A DNA stretch of 10,806 bases from Chloroflexota bacterium (GTDB taxonomy: Bacteria > Chloroflexota > Limnocylindria > Limnocylindrales > CSP1-4), in NCBI GenBank assembly GCA_021789355.1, contig JAJYJR010000114.1, forward strand, positions 1,181 to 11,986, written 5' to 3'. A model generated the notes under the pieces. The model did not search any database, had not been told where the DNA came from, and saw nothing but the letters and a program-made list of their open reading frames with translations. A program made the position numbers and the translations under genes. This document shows, piece after piece, positions 1-10,137 of the stretch (the first letter of the stretch is position 1; each line of letters opens with the position of its first letter).

Positions 1-927
1 ACGGCCACGGCCTTCTATCGACTCTACGTCCCGAGCCTCGCCCAGGCCGAGCCCTGGACCCTCGAGCTCGTCGTGCCACTGGTGGGCAACATCCCGACGA
101 TCTTCACGGTGACCGCGGGTGCGCCGGCCACCCTCACCGAGGCCGGCCCGCCGAACAGCGAGTTCACCCTCGAACGCTCGTTCGACGCACGGATCTGGAT
201 GGCGCTCGCGCAGCTCACCACCGACGCGGCAGGCACGGCGACGTACACGTTCACGCCGGACGCCACCGCCTACTACCGCGCGCAGTTCCCGGACGGCACC
301 GCCGCCGCCGGCCTGGGCGTCGTGCTCCCGCCCCTCTCGTCGGGGATCGTCCTCGCCGGGCCGCCGGTCATCACCTGGGGCACCGGCGCCACCCTCCGCG
401 TCTCGGTCGGCACCGGCGGGAACCGCGCGGTCGAGATCCTGGCGACCCGGGACGCCATCGCCTGGACCCGCGTCGCGCTGCTCACCACCGACGGGCAGGG
501 CACGGCGTCGGTCACCATCCGGCCGACCACCACCGCCTGGTATCGGGCGGTGGTCACGGAGGATCACGACCTGCCCGCGGAAACCAGCGCCGCGATCCGC
601 GTCGTGGTCCGCCAGCTCGCGCTGGCGAAGGGTGCCGGCCGGCCGGTGACGGTGCCACGCGGAGCACCGGCGACCTTCTCGGACGTCCTTCGCCCGGACC
701 GGCCCGGGCTGCCGGTCCCGGTCGCCACCTTCCGTCTCCTGCGCTGGACCGGCGCCCGCTGGCAGCTCGTCCGCTCGATCGTCGCGGCGGCCGATGCGTC
801 GGGGGTGGCCCGGCTCACCGCCGCGTTCGACACGAACGGGCCCTGGTCGGGCACGGCGATGGACGAGGCGATCCCGGACCAGGCGACCAGCGCATGGACC
901 GCGGCCTGGCGCCTCGTGGTGCGCTAG
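1..927 (+). CDS. Ig-like repeat protein, C-terminal part (5' end outside window)
   Basis: The reading frame is open from base 1 to a TAG at 925-927, so the gene starts before the window; a GTG at 73 is internal. What is visible is about 308 residues of beta-rich, Thr/Ala/Gly/Val-rich sequence with no cysteine. It carries tandem repeats of a core resembling GTA-T-x-P-x-TA-YRA: one copy at about 235-285, one at about 499-552, and a related fragment (TATAFYRLYV) at the very start. Each repeat also has a W(M/T)-x-(L/V)A-LTTD strand about ten residues earlier. A third, more divergent domain fills 640-900. The pattern fits tandem bacterial Ig-like or fibronectin-like sandwich domains of an exported protein. 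No sorting signal, LPXTG motif or membrane anchor is seen at the C-terminus. Its function beyond an extracellular or surface role is unknown. An IS481-type element has inserted at its stop codon, which is preserved. Confidence 0.7.
   Translation, partial: TATAFYRLYVPSLAQAEPWTLELVVPLVGNIPTIFTVTAGAPATLTEAGPPNSEFTLERSFDARIWMALAQLTTDAAGTATYTFTPDATAYYRAQFPDGTAAAGLGVVLPPLSSGIVLAGPPVITWGTGATLRVSVGTGGNRAVEILATRDAIAWTRVALLTTDGQGTASVTIRPTTTAWYRAVVTEDHDLPAETSAAIRVVVRQLALAKGAGRPVTVPRGAPATFSDVLRPDRPGLPVPVATFRLLRWTGARWQLVRSIVAAADASGVARLTAAFDTNGPWSGTAMDEAIPDQATSAWTAAWRLVVR
924..927. repeat. Target site duplication CTAG, left copy
   Basis: This CTAG is identical to the copy at 1964-1967. Because it is palindromic it holds two convergent stops: TAG at 925-927 on the plus strand ends the Ig-like gene, and TAG at 926-924 on the minus strand ends the transposase. 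Confidence 0.9.
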
Positions 928-1877
928 GTGTGATTCACGGACACGTTGTTGACGAGCACCTGCATCGGCGTGCGTCCTCCGAGGGCGGTGTGGGGACGGC
1001 CGTGGTTGTAGTGGTGGAGCCAGACAGGCAGCGCCGCCAGGCGCTCCTCGTTGGAGCCATAGGCGCGGGCGTACGCCCACTCGTCGAGCATCGTGCGGTT
1101 GAAGCGCTCGGACTTCCCGTTCGTCTGGGGCCGGAAGGGCCGGGTGCGCAGGTGGCGGGCGGAGAGCTCCTGCAGCGCCCCGGCGAAGGCCCGCGAGGCC
1201 GTGTAGTTCCTGGCGTTATCGGTCATCACCCGCTCGATGCGCACCCCGAGACGGGCGAAGTAGGCCCCCGCGTGGCGCAGGAAGCAGGCGCAGGTGACCC
1301 CGCGCTCGTCGTCGAACACCTCGACGAAGGCGACCCGGCTCGCATCGTCGAGGGCCTGGTGCACGTAGTCGTAGCCGGCGTGCGCCCGGGGCGTCCCGTG
1401 GCCCCGGCCCCGGACGCGCCAGCCACCGCCCGCGGGGATGCGCCCGAGCTTCTTGACATCGAGGTGGAGGAGTTCGCCCGGGCGCTCCCGGACATAGCGG
1501 ATGGGAATACCGGTGGGTCGGTCCCGGTCGCGCAGGCGCGAGAGACCCTGGCGGCGCAGCACGTCGCCGATCGTGGAGCGCGGGACATCGAGGATCGGCG
1601 CGAGCCGGTGGGGACCATAGCCCAGCTCGTGGCGGGCGGTCAGGATCGACCGCACGGTCTCGGCCGGCAGGGCTCGCGAGATCCGCAGGGGCCGCGAACT
1701 GCGGTCCTCCAGACCGGCCGACCCAAACTGCCGGTAGCGGCGCACCCACTTCGAGGCGGTCTGGCGCGACACCCCCGCCGCCTCCGCGGCGCGGGCGAAG
1801 GTCCAGCCCTCCAGTGCGACGCGATCGACCAGGAGCTGCCTGCCGAACACGGTCAGCTTGGCCCTACGATGTCCCAC
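924..1877 (-). CDS. IS481-family DDE transposase
   Basis: This 317-residue protein is of normal length for the family. It has an N-terminal helix-turn-helix (about residues 10-60, with the motif AAGVSRQTASKWVRRY) and a second HTH-like region (about 75-115). An rve/DDE catalytic core follows, with Asp140 (LHLDVKK), Asp220 (VMTDNARNY) and Glu257 (GKSERFNRT); the last two are 36 residues apart, as in DD35E-type enzymes. It ends in the usual YNHGRPHTALGGRTP motif. The start is GTG at 1877, preceded by a GGAGGGG ribosome binding site about 5 nt upstream, and fits the usual family N-terminus (MGHRRAKLTVFGR). The stop codon lies outside the IS proper and is supplied by the target duplication. The frame is undamaged, so the element may be active. 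Confidence 0.95.
   Translation of the reverse strand: MGHRRAKLTVFGRQLLVDRVALEGWTFARAAEAAGVSRQTASKWVRRYRQFGSAGLEDRSSRPLRISRALPAETVRSILTARHELGYGPHRLAPILDVPRSTIGDVLRRQGLSRLRDRDRPTGIPIRYVRERPGELLHLDVKKLGRIPAGGGWRVRGRGHGTPRAHAGYDYVHQALDDASRVAFVEVFDDERGVTCACFLRHAGAYFARLGVRIERVMTDNARNYTASRAFAGALQELSARHLRTRPFRPQTNGKSERFNRTMLDEWAYARAYGSNEERLAALPVWLHHYNHGRPHTALGGRTPMQVLVNNVSVNHT
928..953 (+). repeat. IS481 left terminal inverted repeat
   Basis: The outer end begins GTGTGATTCACG and pairs with 1938-1963 at 23 of 26 positions. It encodes the last residues of the transposase on the minus strand (VNNVSVNHT). Confidence 0.9.
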
Positions 1878-4141: not shown

Positions 4142-4561
4142 ATGGCTGCTCTTGCCGCCCCATGGCTGGACAGCATCGACTCATACGCCAAGCCTGAGTC
4201 GTCGGTCGCCAGCGACCTGACGGTGATCAGCGACTTCTTCGGCATCAAGACAACCGGCAAGACCATGGCGGATCTGGTTGGCTCCACGAGCTCATCGCTT
4301 TGGCGAGGCGCTCGGGCGGGCCTGCCGCCGGGCAGTCGCGTGGCAGCTAGGATCAGCATCCTCGCCGCCTTTGTCCTCGAGACGAGGGGTTACTACAGAG
4401 ACAACGACAAAGCCGTGCCAGAAGCATCGGACGCCTACAGGTGGTTGATGTCCGGCCGGATGGACATCGGCCATGGGCCGGAACGTGTCTTCGATGTCCT
4501 GAAGGACGAAGAGAAGGCGCAGCGTGCCCTCAGCGACATCCGAGCCCGACGGCATGGATAG
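4142..4561 (+). CDS. Small protein, possible HTH / ParS-MbcA-like (DUF2384-type) regulator
   Basis: This 139-residue soluble protein starts at ATG 4142 with GAGG 7 nt upstream. Residues about 25-80 are helical and could form a helix-turn-helix (ISDFFGIKTTGKTMADLVG). The C-terminal third (about 95-135) contains AYRWLMSGRMDIGHGPERVF followed by a helix. This resembles the WL-x-x-P-n-xxL-xG-xPxxL pattern of the toxin-binding domain in Xre/ParS/MbcA antitoxins, though the match is loose. No RES-domain toxin follows, so if it is an antitoxin homologue it is an orphan. It is divergent from the large membrane-protein gene with about 230 bp between starts, which would suit a regulator of that gene. 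It is convergent with the ubiquitin-like operon. It may instead belong to an unrelated family. Confidence 0.6.
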   Translation: MAALAAPWLDSIDSYAKPESSVASDLTVISDFFGIKTTGKTMADLVGSTSSSLWRGARAGLPPGSRVAARISILAAFVLETRGYYRDNDKAVPEASDAYRWLMSGRMDIGHGPERVFDVLKDEEKAQRALSDIRARRHG

Positions 4562-4563
4562 AG

Positions 4564-4616
4564 GCTCGGCCCGAGCGGCGTGTCCTCAAGTCTGACCAAT
4601 CTGCCGGACCCAGACT
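4564..4616. terminator. Candidate stems between convergent genes
   Basis: The 95-bp gap between two convergent genes holds GCTCGG-C-CCGAGC (4564-4576) and AGTCTG...CAGACT (4589-4594 and 4611-4616, 16-nt loop). Either could act as a bidirectional stop, but neither has a T-run. Confidence 0.3.
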
Positions 4617-4656
4617 AGGCCCCGACGCACAGGCACGCGGCGCGAGCAGCCGGCCG

Positions 4657-6144
4657 TCAGCGCAGGCGGTCGGCGAGGTCGTCTGCGATCCGCCCAAGTC
4701 GGACTTGCCATGTTCGGCGGGCGACGCGACGATTGAGGCGTTCCCGGTCGGCTGCATCGTGGGGCGCCGTAACAACGAGACCCGAAGCGTCTCCCACCGC
4801 TTCGAGCGATGGCAAGGAATACGGACAGTCGGGCTCGCACCCACGTTCATCACGCCTGAGATCAGCGCTCGCAAGGTGGAAATGCAACGCGCCGAGATCT
4901 GCGACACCCGAGGGCGCGGCCATCAGGGCCACGAACTGCGCGAGCTCCAAGGACGCCGCACCTAGAGAGAACGCGAAGACGTTCTCGTTCATTCGCAGCG
5001 GATGGTCGGCAGGCAAGCCCTCGATGTATCCCGGCGAGTCGACGTATCCGTCCCGTTCGGCCTGAACAAGTGCGGGATCGTACTGGCCGAGGCACTCCAG
5101 GCAGCGTCGGCCCGGCGCGGCAACGTGGGCACGCCAGTCGGCGTCACGCAACGCGCGTCCGCCCAGGGTCCGAACCTTCACCCCTCCGTCGATCACCGGG
5201 ATGAGGTGGGCATAGGCCGCGAAGTTGAGCACCGCCCGAGGCCACGGACGATCGACGCAGCTGAACAGGAGGTCGCAGTCGAGGGCCGCTCGGAATCCGG
5301 CCTCCTCGACGACGCTCCGCTCGTCGGGGACGATATCGGGCTGGGCCGCGGTGCTACTTCGGCGGAGCGCGCGCGCAAGAACCTCGACCTTCGAGCGGGC
5401 CAGACGGACGTCCCGTTCGGTCGCATGCAGGAGACGGTCGAGGTTCACCTCCTTCACGGTGTCGTAGTCGAAGAGCTCGATGTGTCCGACCCCCGTCCGC
5501 GCGAGCCCCTCGGCGACCATGCTCCCCACGCTGCCAGCGCCGACCACGCCGACCCGCAGTCGGGCGAGCATCGCCTGGACACCGGGGCCCCACGCTGCGA
5601 CCGAGCGCGCCTGGCTTCCGCCCGCAGCCGGAGCCGGCCGGAGCGCGTCGTTGAAGGACACCTCCATGCGCTCACCGACCACCCGCACCGTCTCGCAGTC
5701 GACCCGCTGGTAGTCGTGGGGGCCGCGCCGCTCCCAGAAGCGAGCACTCAACGTCGAGTCACCCGAGAGCGTGAGTCCCACAAGAGGCAGTCCGGTAGCA
5801 GCCAGCACCGCCGGGGCCATCCCATGCTCCGCGCGCTCGTCATCAGGGCTCGTCCCCTGCCAGCCCCGACCACCCGGGTGAGAGTGGATGAAAGCGAGGC
5901 CGCTGCCCGCCTCGAGAGCCGTGCCAATCGACCTCTCCAGGTATGCGGGCTCGAAGCTCGCGTTGCCATGGACGTGTCGGTCCCCCTCGATAGGGCTGAG
6001 AACGTCAGCGACGAGTGCCGTCGTGCGGTTCGCACCGCTGCTGGGATGCCAGAGCAGGAAGGCCAGGTCTTCCTGATGGTCCGCTCGGAGCAGCTGGCCA
6101 CGCAGCCGCGCAAACAGTCCGGTGGTCAGGGCGGCCGATCTCAT
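4657..6144 (-). CDS. JAB/JAMM isopeptidase - ThiF-type E1 fusion
   Basis: This 495-residue protein joins two enzymes. Residues about 1-165 are a JAB (Mov34/MPN-like) metalloprotease with Glu25 and the full JAMM signature H87-S-H89-P...S99-P-D-D102 for zinc-dependent removal of ubiquitin-like proteins. Residues about 185-440 are an E1/ThiF domain with the nucleotide loop VVGAGSVGS (201-208), Asp226, Asp228, Asn234 and Arg237 (FDYDTVKEVNLDR), Lys252, and CVDRPWPR (296-303). Cys348/Cys351 and Cys436/Cys440 probably bind structural zinc. A helical tail ends the protein. It should adenylate the C-terminus of the small modifier encoded two genes upstream and may also trim or remove it. The ATG at 6144 overlaps the E2 stop as ATGA, indicating translational coupling; a longer open frame to 6351 overlaps the E2 gene and is rejected. 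JAB-E1 fusions next to E2-like and multiubiquitin genes are a known bacterial arrangement. Confidence 0.92.
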   Translation of the reverse strand: MRSAALTTGLFARLRGQLLRADHQEDLAFLLWHPSSGANRTTALVADVLSPIEGDRHVHGNASFEPAYLERSIGTALEAGSGLAFIHSHPGGRGWQGTSPDDERAEHGMAPAVLAATGLPLVGLTLSGDSTLSARFWERRGPHDYQRVDCETVRVVGERMEVSFNDALRPAPAAGGSQARSVAAWGPGVQAMLARLRVGVVGAGSVGSMVAEGLARTGVGHIELFDYDTVKEVNLDRLLHATERDVRLARSKVEVLARALRRSSTAAQPDIVPDERSVVEEAGFRAALDCDLLFSCVDRPWPRAVLNFAAYAHLIPVIDGGVKVRTLGGRALRDADWRAHVAAPGRRCLECLGQYDPALVQAERDGYVDSPGYIEGLPADHPLRMNENVFAFSLGAASLELAQFVALMAAPSGVADLGALHFHLASADLRRDERGCEPDCPYSLPSLEAVGDASGLVVTAPHDAADRERLNRRVARRTWQVRLGRIADDLADRLR

Positions 6145-6512
6145 GACAGCGTCGCGAACAAGTGAGCGATGTGCGCCATGTAAGCGCGCGCATTTCGGGC
6201 GCTCTGCCCCCAACCGGGGAACGGCCGGCTCCAATACTCCCAGTCGTCTCCGAACTGAGGCGCCGGATGAACCGCTCCCATCGGGTGCCCCTTGCTGCCA
6301 TCCGGATTGATCGGGAGCAGGCGAGGTCGCACACAAGGCCCGCCCGGGCACGAGAGGTTGTAGTCGCCCGGCACCACGAACCCGAGCGTTACCGCCTCTC
6401 CGGCTCGGGCGCCGACGGGCACCTCGTACGGAAAGGTCACTCGCCCGTCCCCGAGCTCCGTCACTGCAAGACCCAGCGCGCGGAGCTCCGTCACGAAGTC
6501 ACTCGCAGCCAT
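6141..6512 (-). CDS. E2-like (UBC-fold) protein, prokaryotic E2 family
   Basis: This 123-residue protein starts at ATG 6512, three nucleotides after the modifier gene stops, and ends in an ATGA overlap with the JAB-E1 gene. Features seen are PxxYxLSCPGGPC-like residues (VVPGDYNLSCPGGPC, 46-60), a GAVHPAP stretch (79-85), and WEYWSRPFPGW (91-101) followed by a C-terminal helix (AYMAHIAHLFATL). This pattern, small size and position match the E2/UBC family proteins that accompany multiubiquitin, JAB and E1 genes in bacteria (family E-like). The expected role is to accept the activated modifier from the E1 and pass it to a target. The only cysteines are Cys55 and Cys60, so one of these would be the thioester site if the protein is a true E2. 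The assignment rests on motif and context. Confidence 0.8.
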   Translation of the reverse strand: MAASDFVTELRALGLAVTELGDGRVTFPYEVPVGARAGEAVTLGFVVPGDYNLSCPGGPCVRPRLLPINPDGSKGHPMGAVHPAPQFGDDWEYWSRPFPGWGQSARNARAYMAHIAHLFATLS

Positions 6513-6515
6513 CGC

Positions 6516-6782
6516 CTACGACACCGGCGTCGGCCCAGTCGAGACCGAGATGAACTTGGCGTCCTCATGGACGTGGATCGGCGTATCCGGCTCCGCTTCG
6601 TAGGACACGCGGTGGCGACCATCGATCTGCACCAGGTAGTGGGTCGCCGGGTCGATCTTTGCGAGGGTCAGGATCTGACGCGGCGTCAGCTCTCGCGCCG
6701 TGGTCGTCACCTGCTCGCCGTCGACCGTGAAGTCAATGGAATGGTCGTTGTGCTGGTCAGGCACGTCGCTGTGTGTATCCAT
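6516..6782 (-). CDS. Ubiquitin-like modifier, single multiubiquitin-type domain
   Basis: This 88-residue protein comes first in the operon. After a polar, acidic N-terminus (1-15) comes one beta-grasp-like unit. It starts with a strand (SIDFTVDGEQVTT), continues with TARELTPRQILTLAKIDPATHYLV, a pattern typical of the multiubiquitin family, and ends with strands around KFISVST. It has one domain, although many family members have several. It should be the protein tag activated by the E1 and transferred by the E2-like protein. The C-terminus is STGPTPVS: there is no terminal Gly-Gly, and a lone Gly83 is followed by five residues. The ATG at 6782 is chosen because it has GAGG 8 nt upstream and fits the domain. 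An earlier in-frame ATG at 6869 lies inside the regulatory dyad and adds a non-conserved leader. Confidence 0.85.
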   Translation of the reverse strand: MDTHSDVPDQHNDHSIDFTVDGEQVTTTARELTPRQILTLAKIDPATHYLVQIDGRHRVSYEAEPDTPIHVHEDAKFISVSTGPTPVS

Positions 6783-6848
6783 CGCTCGGACCTCGCTGTG
6801 GGTTGCGGCGCGTCGAGCCGCCTCTACGACGGCTCCGTGCCAAGAGAA

Positions 6849-6871
6849 GGATATACCAAATAGGTACATCC
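6849..6871. promoter_or_regulatory. Inverted-repeat operator candidate in divergent control region
   Basis: GGATATACC (6849-6857) and GGTACATCC (6863-6871) form an inverted repeat with 9-bp arms (8 of 9 paired) around 5 nt. It is in an AT-richer patch between the modifier operon and the toxin gene. Related half-sites AATACC (6888-6893) and GGTATC (6913-6918) form a looser second dyad whose centre is about 43 bp away. The spacing suits cooperative binding by an XRE-type repressor such as the HigA-like protein downstream. Confidence 0.5.
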
Positions 6872-6876
6872 TACAA
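6850..6876 (-). promoter_or_regulatory. Candidate promoter for the ubiquitin-like operon
   Basis: On the minus strand TTGTAG (6876-6871) and TATATC (6855-6850) are 15 nt apart. The -10 lies inside the inverted repeat, so a repressor bound there would block it. The spacing is short and the assignment tentative. Confidence 0.25.
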
Positions 6877-6894
6877 GAGGTTGACCGAATACCT

Positions 6895-6900
6895 TATACT
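6895..6900 (+). promoter_or_regulatory. Candidate -10 for the toxin-antitoxin genes
   Basis: TATACT matches five of six bases of the -10 consensus and lies 26 nt before the toxin GTG. It sits between the two dyads. No convincing -35 is found at 16-18 nt; TTGACC at 6881-6886 is too close. Confidence 0.35.
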
Positions 6901-6926
6901 CACCAAGTTCATGGTATCTGACTCAA

Positions 6927-7271
6927 GTGGTACGCGTGGACCTCGCCTTTCGCACGAGACAGCTGCAGCGCCGATGCTCCTCCGAGGGCCTGATGGTCAG
7001 GACCTGGGGAGCGGAGACCGCGCGGCGCCTCGGGCGAGTGCTCCATCAGCTCGAAGCGGCCGAGACACTCGCCGAGATGGCGACCCTTCCACAGCTGCGC
7101 TGCCACGAATTGCAGGGGGATCGTGACGGGCAGATCAGTCTCGATCTGACGCACCCACTCAGGCTGATCGTCGAGGTGGCAATGGATCCCGTCCCCCGCA
7201 AAGTCGACGGCGGGCTGGACTGGAGCCAGGTGTCCGCCGTGATTGTGGTGGAGGTCGCAGATACTCACTAG
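6927..7271 (+). CDS. higB: HigB/RelE-type toxin of a toxin-antitoxin pair
   Basis: This 114-residue protein has the HigB-like (plasmid maintenance killer) layout. There is an N-terminal helical region with WGAETARRLGRVLHQLEAAETL (27-48), typical of the family helix followed by xLDxA-x-L. Then come LQGDRDGQISLDL (62-74) and strands LRLIVEV and VIVVEVADTH, the last matching the family ending VEIVDYH. Such proteins are ribosome-dependent mRNA endonucleases that stop translation when not bound by their antitoxin. The middle (87-100) is slightly longer than usual. The gene lies 30 nt upstream of an XRE-peptidase gene, in the HigBA order of toxin first. The start is uncertain: GTG 6927 is listed and GTG 6936 is possible. 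Neither has a strong ribosome binding site. Confidence 0.8.
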   Translation: MVRVDLAFRTRQLQRRCSSEGLMVRTWGAETARRLGRVLHQLEAAETLAEMATLPQLRCHELQGDRDGQISLDLTHPLRLIVEVAMDPVPRKVDGGLDWSQVSAVIVVEVADTH

Positions 7272-7301
7272 CCCAACAGGGACGGAAAGGAGAGTGTCCG
7301 G

Positions 7302-8405
7302 GTGGCCAACTCTGCGCTGCAGACGACCTACCCCTACCGACCTGACTACGCGATCCCGCCCGGCGAGACGCTGCGGGACACCCTCGAGGCGGTCGACATG
7401 CCCCAGGCTGAGCTCGCCCGTCGTACCGGACTGTCAGTCAAGCACATCAACCAGATCGTGCAAGGCGCCGCACCGATCACACCGGACACCGCGCTCGCTT
7501 TGGAGCGCGTCACTGGCGTGCCCGCCCAGCTGTGGGCGCGGTTGGAGGCCACCTATCAGGCCCGGGAAGCCCGTCGGCGCGAGCGCATGACGCTTGATCC
7601 GAGCCTGTCGTGGCTCGATCGACTACCGATCCGCGACCTGGTACGTCGGGGCTATCTACCCCAAACCCATGATCGCATCGCCCTCCTGCAGGACGTGCTG
7701 ACGTTCTTTGGGATCGCGAATGCGGGTGCCTGGAATGAGGTCTGGATGGCACCCGGCGCCGCCTTTCGCAGGTCCCCCGCGTTCAGCAGCGACCCATATG
7801 CAGTGGCATGCTGGCTTCGGATAGGGGAAATCGAGGCGTCCAAAATCGAGTGCCAACCGTTCGACCGCGCCCGGTTTGTTGCAGCCCTGCGCCGGATTCG
7901 ATCCCTCATGGGGGCCAGTCCCGACGCGTTCGAGCCCGAGCTGGTCGGGCTGTGCCGCCAGAGCGGGGTGGCGGTGGTGTTCGTGGCGGAGATCAAAGGC
8001 GCGCGGACGAGCGGGGCAGCGCACTGGCTAAGCCCCACAAAGGCGCTGATCCAGCTGTCACTGCGCTACCGGTGGGCCGATCATTTCTGGTTCACGTTCT
8101 TCCACGAGGCAGGCCACCTTCTACTACACGGCAAGCGCGAGGCCTTCCTCGACGACGGCAGAGACGACCGAGACGTGCGGGAGCGCCAGGCTGACACGTT
8201 TGCAGCGCGGACCCTTATCCCGATCGAACACGAGCCGCAGCTTGCTCACCTGACCACGCTCGCCGCGATCCGCTCGTTCGCCGACTCCGTCGGCGTCCCG
8301 CCGGGAATAGTTGTCGGCAGGCTCCAGCGTGAGCACGTCATTCCTTTCAACGTCGGCAATCATCTCCGAGTCCAATACCAGCTCCGAGACGACGTGGGGC
8401 GGTGA
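7302..8405 (+). CDS. HigA-type XRE antitoxin fused to ImmA/IrrE-family zinc peptidase
   Basis: This protein has 367 residues, with a GTG start at 7302 and an AAGGAG ribosome binding site 9 nt upstream. Residues about 18-90 are a HigA-like XRE domain with IPPGETLRDTLEAVDMPQAE followed by RTGLSVKHINQIVQGAAPIT and a LERVTGVPAQLW helix. After a helical linker (about 95-210), the C-terminal half is a COG2856 (ImmA/IrrE) metallopeptidase. It has zinc motif H268-E-A-G-H272 (FFHEAGHLLLH) and the downstream ERQADTFAARTLIP segment (294-307), which carries the expected acidic ligand. It should bind and neutralise the HigB-like toxin and repress the operon. The peptidase suggests control by proteolysis, as ImmA-type enzymes cleave phage-type repressors after DNA damage. 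XRE-IrrE fusions paired with RelE-like toxins are common in actinobacteria. Its substrate is unknown. Confidence 0.9.
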   Translation: MANSALQTTYPYRPDYAIPPGETLRDTLEAVDMPQAELARRTGLSVKHINQIVQGAAPITPDTALALERVTGVPAQLWARLEATYQAREARRRERMTLDPSLSWLDRLPIRDLVRRGYLPQTHDRIALLQDVLTFFGIANAGAWNEVWMAPGAAFRRSPAFSSDPYAVACWLRIGEIEASKIECQPFDRARFVAALRRIRSLMGASPDAFEPELVGLCRQSGVAVVFVAEIKGARTSGAAHWLSPTKALIQLSLRYRWADHFWFTFFHEAGHLLLHGKREAFLDDGRDDRDVRERQADTFAARTLIPIEHEPQLAHLTTLAAIRSFADSVGVPPGIVVGRLQREHVIPFNVGNHLRVQYQLRDDVGR

Positions 8406-8682
8406 CGCCGGAGCCGACGTGCGCAAGCGGCGTGCCGCGCAGGGGGCTGCGGCGGTTCACGCACCCAGTATCTTCTCGGATATGGGGACCCTCGCCGGAC
8501 CGCAGCGATCGCGGGAAACGAATTCTGCAGCAGCTCCGTCCGCCCGCACAAGTCGCCTGCTAGTTGCTCACACAGCCTGGGCTAAGTGCCCGGTAGCGCG
8601 GAGCACATCTGACCCCGGACGAGATCACCGCGCTGCTCGACCAGCCGCGGGGTATGCTCGGGCGGTCAGCGAGGGAGAGTCC
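8406..8682. other. Intergenic stretch before the methyltransferase
   Basis: This holds no gene I can support. A short frame at 8609-8650 would read LTPDEITALLDQPRG, which looks protein-like but has no start or domain and may be a relic. The only other feature noted is a GCGATCGC palindrome at 8505-8512. Confidence 0.4.
8653..8658 (+). promoter_or_regulatory. Candidate -10 of the methyltransferase gene
   Basis: TATGCT lies 24 nt before the ATG at 8683, upstream of a GAGGGAGAG ribosome binding site (8671-8679). No recognisable -35 is present. Confidence 0.3.
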
Positions 8683-10137
8683 ATGGTCGAGCCTAGCGCT
8701 AACCTGCTCTACTACGGCGACAACCTGGACGTCCTGCGCCGCCACCTCCGTGACGAGTCTGTGGACCTCGTCTACCTCGATCCACCGTTCAACTCGAACG
8801 CGACCTACAACGTGCTGTTCTCAGAGCACGGCGTCCGCGCCGCGGCGCAGATCCAGGCGTTCGGGGACACATGGGAGTGGAACACCGATTCCGCGAGCGC
8901 CTATGAAGAGGTCGTCGAGCGGGGTGGAGCGGTGGCGAATGCCATGCTTGCCTTCCGTACCCTGCTCGGCGGGTCGGACATGCTCGCGTATCTCTCGATG
9001 ATGGCGCCCCGACTCGTTGAGTTGCACCGGGTGCTCAAGCCGACCGGAACCATCTACCTCCACTGCGACCCGACCGCCTCCCACTACCTGAAGCTGCTCC
9101 TGGATCGGGTGTTCGGGGCCAGGAACTTCCGCAACGAAATCATCTGGTGCTACGCGGGTGGGGGAATCCCTCGCAAGGACTTCCCGCGCAAGCACGACGT
9201 GATCCTGCGGTACACCAAGTCCGATGACTACTTCTACCAGCCGATCTTCCGCCCGTACAGCCCCGGCACTGTCCAGCGAGGACGGACGCAGGTCAAGGGG
9301 GTCTACTTCGATGCCGGACTACGGCCCGAGGGAACTCCGGTCAATGACTGGTGGCCTGACGTATCGAAGATTACGAGCCCGACCGACCCAGAGAAGCTCG
9401 GTTACCCGACGCAGAAGTCCCGGGCACTCCTGGAGCGCATCCTCGTCGCGAGCAGCGAGCCGGGCGGCCTCGTGCTGGATCCGTTCTGCGGATGTGGCAC
9501 GACGATCGATGCCGCGCAAGAGCTGGGCCGTCGCTGGATCGGCATCGACATCACCCACCTCGCCATCGGCCTGATCAAACACCGGCTAGCAGACCGGTAC
9601 GGCCCTGAGATCGCCGCGACATACCGGGTCGTCGGAGAACCCACCACCGTTGAAGACGCGGCCGTACTCGCCCGGGAGGACCCCTTCCAGTTTCAGGCGT
9701 GGGCGCTTGGGCTCGTCGGGGCAAGGGTGGCGGGCAGTGACCGGAGGGGTGCGGATCGCGGGATCGATGGGCGGCTTTACTTTCACGATTCGGCGGGCGG
9801 GGAAACCCGCCAGATCATCTTCAGCGTCAAGGCAGGAGAGCACCTGTCCCCATCCTTCGTCCGCGACCTGCGTGGTGTGATCGAGAAGGAGCACGCGCAC
9901 ATCGGCGTCCTGATCACGTTTGCCGATCCGACTTCAGGCATGGAAGCTGAAGCCGCCAGCGCGGGCTTCTATGCCTCGCCATGGGGTCACCACCCGCGCC
10001 TGCAACTGAGAACGGTAGCCCAACTGCTCGACGGCAGAGGGATCGACTATCCCCACGTCGCGGGGGCCAACGTGACATTCCAGCGAGCCGAGCGGATCAA
10101 GAAAGCGGCCGAGCAGGCCGAGCTGTTCGGGGGTTAG
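8683..10137 (+). CDS. DNA methyltransferase - Mrr-like nuclease fusion (single-chain restriction-modification)
   Basis: This 484-residue protein starts at ATG 8683 with GAGGGAGAG just upstream. The frame is open further upstream, but homologues begin near NLLYYGDNLDVLRRH, at residue 7 here. Residues 1-320 are a beta-class amino methyltransferase: motif IV YLDPPFNSN (31-39) precedes the SAM-binding motif I VLDPFCGCGTT (264-274). The region between them would hold target recognition. Residues about 322-435 form a PD-(D/E)xK nuclease-like domain (PFQFQAWALGLVGA, then GADRGIDGRL with Asp358 and Asp362, then FSVKAG with Lys383), ending in a conserved RDLRGVIEKEHAHIGVLITF stretch. The position usually Glu or Gln before xK is Ser381. 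The C-terminus AEQAELFGG resembles the usual LF tail. It probably methylates adenine or cytosine-N4 in a specific site and may cut unmodified DNA. A small gene follows after 4 nt. Confidence 0.92.
   Translation: MVEPSANLLYYGDNLDVLRRHLRDESVDLVYLDPPFNSNATYNVLFSEHGVRAAAQIQAFGDTWEWNTDSASAYEEVVERGGAVANAMLAFRTLLGGSDMLAYLSMMAPRLVELHRVLKPTGTIYLHCDPTASHYLKLLLDRVFGARNFRNEIIWCYAGGGIPRKDFPRKHDVILRYTKSDDYFYQPIFRPYSPGTVQRGRTQVKGVYFDAGLRPEGTPVNDWWPDVSKITSPTDPEKLGYPTQKSRALLERILVASSEPGGLVLDPFCGCGTTIDAAQELGRRWIGIDITHLAIGLIKHRLADRYGPEIAATYRVVGEPTTVEDAAVLAREDPFQFQAWALGLVGARVAGSDRRGADRGIDGRLYFHDSAGGETRQIIFSVKAGEHLSPSFVRDLRGVIEKEHAHIGVLITFADPTSGMEAEAASAGFYASPWGHHPRLQLRTVAQLLDGRGIDYPHVAGANVTFQRAERIKKAAEQAELFGG

What the first reader, a model, noticed from the sequence alone, without database searches (positions are those of the whole stretch)
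4657..6782. Three-gene ubiquitin-like conjugation and deconjugation operon
A single-domain multiubiquitin-type modifier, an E2-like protein and a JAB-E1 fusion lie head to tail with a 3-nt gap and an ATGA overlap. The JAMM motif and the E1 nucleotide loop are intact. Related bacterial operons are described from comparative genomics, and some are antiviral (Bil-type and related systems). This version is minimal: no E3, no separate DUB and no extra accessory gene of the kind often seen in relatives. Its divergent toxin-antitoxin-peptidase neighbour may be part of the system.
Basis: partly seen in the sequence, partly recalled or inferred. Interest (0 to 1): 0.8.

Follow-up and report, generated by a model that had tools for sequence, protein, structure and literature searches.

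The report
Bacterial ubiquitin-like operon with toxin–antitoxin switch
Three neighbouring bacterial genes encode a small ubiquitin-like tag and the enzymes expected to attach and remove it, and they face a toxin–antitoxin–protease gene pair across a likely shared control site, which suggests that the tagging system is switched on under stress such as virus attack.

The parts
6516..6782 (-). single-domain ubiquitin-like modifier (BubA-like), 88 aa, C-terminus ...STGPTPVS
   Evidence: Multi_ubiq E 1e-4, below cut-off; model pLDDT 81, best PDB matches bacterial multi-ubiquitin 8u38, 9d5b, 9d59 and, further down, BubA 9ea8; 35 proteins in the family incl. this one
6141..6512 (-). E2-like protein (BubB-like), 123 aa, invariant Ser95-Arg96, no conserved Cys
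4657..6144 (-). JAB (JAMM) + E1 adenylating fusion (BubCD-like), 495 aa, four zinc-type cysteines (C348, C351, C436, C440)
   Evidence: ThiF E 3e-26; Citrobacter BubCD 9ea4 E 2e-27 over residues 6-405; catalytic positions invariant in 120 listed proteins, S99 in 118
6848..6872 (.). palindrome AGGATATACC-AAATA-GGTACATCCT (one mismatched pair) with core TACCAAATAGGTA (6854-6866): probable HigA operator in the shared divergent promoter
   Evidence: by itself not significant (35 of 500 shuffles as good)
6927..7271 (+). HigB/RelE-like toxin gene, divergent
   Evidence: Pfam HigB-like_toxin E 0.01, below cut-off; relatives in L021 and L038 pass the cut-off
7302..8405 (+). HigA antitoxin-like HTH fused to M78 (ImmA/IrrE) peptidase, HEAGH zinc motif intact
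   Evidence: HTH_3 E 7e-9, Peptidase_M78 E 6e-8, HigA family above cut-off, PADLOC PD-Lambda-2_B E 6e-28, H268 E269 H272 invariant in 9 of 9

Best explanation
The three genes are a minimal Bub-like ubiquitin-like conjugation pathway. The E1 half of the fusion adenylates the Ubl C-terminus (shown: ATP-site residues; inferred: activity). It hands the Ubl to the E2, most likely as an ester on Ser95 rather than a thioester (shown: invariant Ser, no conserved Cys, BubB-like fold; inferred: chemistry). The E2 attaches it to target proteins without an E3 (inferred). The fused JAMM domain removes the Ubl and trims tails that extend past the conserved Val-Ser (inferred). The divergent HigA-M78 protein binds the 6848-6872 palindrome and represses both directions (shown: the site and its recurrence; inferred: binding). 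Damage or infection, probably sensed as single-stranded DNA by the M78 domain as in CapP and PprI, lifts repression, so the Ubl operon and the HigB toxin are induced together in a defence or stress response (inferred).
For: Bub relatives by sequence and fold. JAMM, ATP-site and zinc-type positions kept in 120 listed E1 proteins and E2 Ser95-Arg96 in 52 of 52, with 22 of 52 E2s lacking any Cys. Ubl, E2 and E1 together in 17 of 17 loci. Divergent HigB-like + HigA-M78 at ten Ubl operons: window, L003, L004, L019-L023, L038, L039. Operator in 10 of 10, expected 0.07; in 8 of 19 loci not used to define it, expected 0.12; palindromic form in 0 of 9 Ubl loci with other regulators. CapP and PprI are activated by ssDNA (PMC13373217, PMC10904395, passages read).
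Against: No function was tested. 0 of 13 genome-derived HigA-M78 loci carry a Ubl-type E1. In this E1 type 9 of 17 loci lack HigA-M78, among them all 7 genome-derived ones. The operator pattern was read off the ten loci first; only the 19-locus set is independent, and 11 of those 19 lack it. No sigma-70-type promoter was found in 4500-8700. After residue 300 the E1 shows no conserved Ser or Cys except the four zinc-type cysteines (and Thr459 in 109 of 120), so an E1 covalent step, if any, is unexplained. 11 of 35 Ubl proteins carry residues beyond V-S. No relative in phage records or in a viral-contig scan.
Confidence: 0.55

Rival explanations
1. The HigB/HigA-M78 pair is an independent addiction or abortive-infection module that only happens to lie divergently; the Ubl operon is regulated otherwise.
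For: Autonomous in 13 genome-derived loci. PD-lambda-2, with the same A and B gene types, works with a different third gene (PMC9519451, passages read). Among the ten best plasmid hits the pair is present in 7 of 9 examined, in the genome-derived loci of the same E1 type in 0 of 7, which would fit plasmid addiction.
Against: Ten divergent arrangements with the operator between the two genes; in the HigA-M78 tree the label needs 5 changes and at least 2 are forced by well-supported branches, so the arrangement was probably reached more than once; other Ubl operons carry other upstream metallopeptidase-type genes (23 of 29 loci, HigA-M78 loci included, code an HExxH protein within 4 kb upstream).
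Confidence: 0.3
2. The E2-like protein is inactive (a UEV/RWD-like adaptor) and the E1 conjugates alone or with a host factor.
Against: Ser95-Arg96-Pro97 and Trp101 invariant in 52 of 52; Ser seen by eye also in far relatives and in Citrobacter BubB.
Confidence: 0.2
3. The Ubl is a sulfur carrier (ThiS/MoaD/TtuB-like) and the JAMM a processing protease; there is no protein conjugation.
For: E1 is of the ThiF/MoeB fold; JAMM-carrier pairs exist (recalled).
Against: The Ubl lacks the C-terminal glycine of sulfur carriers; a dedicated E2-like gene is kept; no sulfur-pathway gene seen among the genes annotated or in the window.
Confidence: 0.05

Closest known systems
Bub (bacterial ubiquitination-like) pathway, Citrobacter BubA/BubB/BubCD (PDB 9ea4, 9ea5, 9ea8, 9eae, 9eav)
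   Same: Ubl, E2-like and JAB-E1 fusion; BubB-like fold; WSR serine motif in E2
   Different: single-domain free Ubl ending V-S, whereas the Citrobacter multi-ubiquitin chain 9d59_A ends in Gly; four zinc-type Cys in E1 that do not align with Cys in BubCD (for the first pair); no DUF6527 gene; HigB/HigA-M78 instead of CapH+CapP, CapW or CapK+CapS
Type 6e operons of Iyer, Burroughs and Aravind 2006 (PMC1779556, passages read)
   Same: polyUbl + E2/RWD-like + JAB-E1 fusion; one species with a solo Ubl; an actinobacterium is listed
   Different: a 'metal-binding protein Y' gene is listed there and none was recognised here; E2 called inactive there
PD-lambda-2 (PMC9519451, passages read)
   Same: HigB-like gene followed by HigA-HTH fused to a peptidase (PADLOC PD-Lambda-2_B E 6e-28)
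   Different: its third gene is an antitoxin-related C gene, not a divergent Ubl operon; no C gene recognised here
CapH + CapP regulators
   Same: HTH repressor plus M78-type peptidase next to an immune operon; 219 of 544 Bub operons have CapW or CapH+CapP (PMC13373217, passages)
   Different: here HTH and peptidase are one HigA-type protein with a RelE-type partner and its own operator pattern
Bil (BilA-D)
   Same: Ubl, E2, JAMM and E1 in one operon (PMC11354881, passages)
   Different: Bil has a separate JAMM protein and an E2 with a catalytic Cys in a CEHH motif; neither here

Membership tests
Bub pathway | E1 adenylation domain related to BubCD | tested here: met
   phmmer E 2e-27 over residues 6-405 of 495; profile E 1e-35
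Bub pathway | fused N-terminal JAMM with intact motif | tested here: met
   E25, H87, H89, D102 120 of 120; S99 118 of 120
Bub pathway | BubB-type E2 fold with the WSR serine motif | tested here: met
Bub pathway | multi-ubiquitin type Ubl | tested here: met
   Foldseek's nine best rows are bacterial multi-ubiquitin or BubA, three of them with E under 0.001; Pfam Multi_ubiq below cut-off
Bub pathway | DUF6527 partner (that this is the Bub serine protease BubE is recalled) | tested here: not met
   no match in the window nor in the other 16 loci of this E1 type by a 3-seed profile; the profile missed one annotated DUF6527 (L039), so its sensitivity is limited. Whether the partner defines Bub could not be checked, as the papers are not held; hence 'Bub-like', not 'a Bub'
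Bub pathway | oxyester rather than thioester intermediates (recalled, paper not held) | not testable with these tools
   sequence is consistent: no conserved Cys in E2
Bil | E2 catalytic Cys and separate JAMM protein | tested here: not met
   no conserved Cys in E2; JAMM fused to E1
PD-lambda-2 | HigB-like gene plus HigA-peptidase fusion | tested here: met
   (HigB Pfam match below cut-off)
PD-lambda-2 | third gene C next to them | tested here: not met
   the next gene downstream is a DNA methyltransferase; no C model among the PADLOC families shown for the nine window proteins given (lists capped at 25 for two of them)
Antiphage defence system | protects cells from phage | not testable with these tools
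   only defence-type neighbours in some loci

The most novel reading that the evidence does not exclude
A toxin-antitoxin-protease has repeatedly been docked onto ubiquitin-like conjugation operons as their switch: one HigA-M78 protein holds the toxin and the tagging system silent through a single operator and releases both on damage or infection. The tagging system uses a modifier with a non-glycine (Val-Ser/Ala) C-terminus and a serine E2.
Probability: 0.35. Interest if true: 0.75.

Novelty: new variant of a known kind. Interest (0 to 1): 0.55.

Why it matters
It would show toxin-antitoxin modules acting as interchangeable stress switches for ubiquitin-like systems in bacteria, with a defined operator that can be tested at once. 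It also offers a very simple cascade, three genes with neither E3 nor DUF6527 partner, in which serine-based transfer and activation of a non-glycine C-terminus can be tested.

Tried and rejected
Bil assignment: rejected (fused JAMM, E2 without conserved Cys). CBASS Cap2 / 6A-MBL: PADLOC and NCBIfam matches shown cover only the adenylation domain and are weaker than the Bub match. 'Ubl activated at Gly83 after JAMM cleavage (STG|PTPVS)': not excluded, but Gly is missing near the end in relatives such as L021 (..RQSAQVA) while V-[SA] is kept. 'Glycine ends go with DUF6527, V-S ends with its absence': rejected, since DUF6527-linked L039, L086 and L087 end in Ser and L089 reads to GIRR. Promoter scan of 4500-8700: nothing. 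Genome scan with one sequence: one weak locus, L001, used only to obtain a genome handle. Phages: no match. Viral contigs: 24 stretches matched two short patterns, none encoded a relative. VIA second look for the Ubl: not run.

Rows left out of the 17-locus count: L037 (fragment at a contig end), L033 and L034 (weak E1 matches, other type), L005 and L024-L027 (other types), L001. H4 of the ten best plasmid hits was not fetched; of 144 plasmid records only 30 were listed. Of the 14 genomes with HigA-M78, G159 (two fragments) was not fetched.

Papers by Ye 2026, Gong 2025 and Chambers 2024 are not held; what is said of oxyesters and BubE is recalled. No printed account of HigB/HigA-M78 next to Ubl operons was seen in the listings of searches; the held library lacks those papers, and the listing of one search was off topic.

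Full report
WHAT IS THERE. On the minus strand lie a Ubl (6782-6516), an E2-like gene (6512-6141) and a JAB-E1 fusion (6144-4657), with a 3-nt gap and an ATGA overlap. On the plus strand, after 144 nt, lie a HigB/RelE-like gene (6927-7271) and a HigA-HTH fused to an M78 peptidase (7302-8405). No whole genome is held for the window. The nearest homologue with a source name is, for the E1 (65% identity) and for the E2 (69%), from a Candidatus Limnocylindrales bacterium.

ACTIVE SITES. Over the 120 E1 proteins listed (query included), E25, H87, H89, D102, G202, G204, D226, D228, R237, K252, D298 and the cysteines C348, C351, C436, C440 are invariant; S99 is S in 118. After residue 300 no other Ser, Thr or Cys column reaches 90% except T459 (109 of 120). 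Over 52 E2 proteins, Y93, S95, R96, P97 and W101 are invariant; C55 is Cys in 13 and C60 in 9; 22 of 52 have no cysteine at all. A thioester E2 is therefore excluded for at least those 22, if their sequences are complete. The Ser lies in the WSR motif that Citrobacter BubB shares. By eye, without a common alignment, the Ser is also present in the far E2s printed; the Arg after it is replaced in L027. That this Ser sits where eukaryotic E2s have Cys is my reading of the motif (H82..S95..W101); no residue-level structural alignment was available.

THE UBL END. Of 35 Ubl proteins, 24 end in V-S, 9 have one residue more, 2 have more, none ends in Gly. In the 17 loci of this E1 type, 16 end in V-S or V-A and one (L030) in V-E. 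Non-glycine ends also occur elsewhere in the wider family: DDNS in L024, L038, L088, L090; Ser in DUF6527-linked L039, L086, L087. Gly ends occur in L026, L027, L033, L034, L091. So this is not unique to the clade, and its meaning is open.

DISTRIBUTION. Plasmids: 144 records match the E1, 68 over at least 80% of it. Genomes, in the phylum of the Rhodoglobus MAG that holds L001 (which I take to be Actinomycetota; the tool does not name it): 7 of 396 at E 1e-30, two of them weak and of another type; a second draw within the class of one of them gave 5 of 399 at E 1e-40, two of these the same genomes; one order gave 1 of 232. Phage records: none. Viral contigs: none.

THE DIVERGENT MODULE. In ten loci a HigB-like gene plus HigA-M78 is divergent to a Ubl operon: window, L003, L004, L019, L020, L021, L022, L023 with this E1 type, L038 with another JAB-E1, and L039 with a shorter E1 in which I see no JAMM motif, no separate E2 gene annotated, and DUF6527. 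L038 and L039 were found through HigA-M78, so they do not count towards frequency. The HigB-like genes of L003 and L004 match no Pfam family and were recognised by similarity and position. Within this E1 type the pair is found in 8 of 17 loci: 7 of the 9 examined among the ten best plasmid hits, 0 of 7 genome-derived loci (one of which, L030, is near a contig end), and the window. Elsewhere there: a sigma factor or sigma-region-4-like protein with an M78 or other HExxH protein (L002, L028, L035, L036; L036 and part of L028 by eye), HTH-M78 fusion (L029), CapH+CapP-like genes (L032), nothing recognised upstream (L018, L030, L031). Over 29 Ubl loci examined, 23 code an HExxH protein of 110 or more residues within 4 kb upstream (22, L032 by profile); the regular expression was loose, and in L035 it struck outside the M78 site.

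OPERATOR. The pattern YACC-N5-GGTR was noticed in the window and nine other shared promoters, so its 10 of 10 is partly by construction (0.068 expected from dinucleotide shuffles). In 19 HigA-M78 loci not used to define it, 8 have it near the toxin or antitoxin start against 0.12 expected (P about 1e-13 on shuffles); 583 of 20000 random 210-bp stretches of the same loci, sites included, carry it. Of 9 Ubl loci with other regulators none has the palindromic form; one has a non-palindromic match. The site thus goes with HigA-M78, and in the window it lies between the two divergent starts. The window's palindrome has 10-bp arms with one mismatched pair; by itself it is not significant (35 of 500 shuffles as good).

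ONE ORIGIN OR SEVERAL. In a tree of 29 HigA-M78 proteins the label 'faces a Ubl operon' needs 5 changes, at least 2 forced by well-supported branches; 12 of 26 inner branches are weak. Against an obligate link: 14 of 396 genomes have HigA-M78, none of them among the 7 with the E1 or the 12 with Multi_ubiq in the same draw; of 13 fetched loci none has an E1, Ubl or E2 match, also not with a wider E1 profile that finds the Ubl loci in hand; 12 of the 13 carry HigB by the profile. One unlinked case, L041, faces an operon annotated as nucleotide cyclase, E2 domain protein and TIR protein, and L043 lies in a group of restriction-modification genes; both have the operator.

MECHANISM. HTH + M78 pairs act as damage switches: CapP is activated by ssDNA and cleaves CapH (PMC13373217, passages); PprI is activated by ssDNA and cleaves DdrO (PMC10904395, abstract and passages). 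Makarova et al. 2009 already proposed a three-component switch of Xre-COG2856 fusions with RelE or PIN toxins (PMC2701414, passages). PD-lambda-2 has the same A and B gene types; there B alone was toxic and A rescued (PMC9519451, passages), the reverse of the usual roles, so which of the window's two proteins is the toxin is open. I infer that HigA-M78 silences both directions and releases them on damage.

VERDICT. A Bub-like pathway in a very small form, with what appears to be a newly recognised kind of switch. The conjugation assignment is supported by sequence and fold; the switch by comparative evidence; defence is inferred from neighbours alone.

Noticed in passing
window 8654-10137, + strand (ORF call 8311-10137): N6/N4 DNA methylase fused to an Mrr-like / NACHT-associated REase-like C-terminal domain, next to the toxin-antitoxin pair: defence-type neighbourhood.
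   Followed up: no
window 924-1877, - strand: IS481 family transposase, a sign of mobility near the locus.
   Followed up: no
window 4142-4561, + strand: 139-aa ORF without a match in Pfam, NCBIfam or PADLOC, convergent with the JAB-E1 gene.
   Followed up: no
L035 4420-7205, L028 3232-5784, L036 4121-6659: Other operons of the same E1 type have a divergent sigma-region-4-like protein with an M78 or other HExxH protein, and in L035 a protein with a zinc-finger-like N-terminus: a different switch in the same place.
   Followed up: partly
L041 2339-6056: HigA-M78 divergent to an operon annotated cyclase, E2 domain protein and TIR protein, with the same operator at 4750: the switch may serve other immune operons too.
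   Followed up: partly
L027 4087-9432: A RES/Xre-type gene pair lies divergent to a Ubl-E2-E1-DUF6527 operon that also holds a phosphotransferase gene.
   Followed up: no
L024, L038, L088, L090: A further Ubl group ends in DDNS; non-glycine ends recur among multi-ubiquitin proteins.
   Followed up: partly
L036 8178-9739; L032 8146-12281: E1 genes broken by a frame change or split with a transposase-like gene between the pieces: decay of the operon in some genomes.
   Followed up: no
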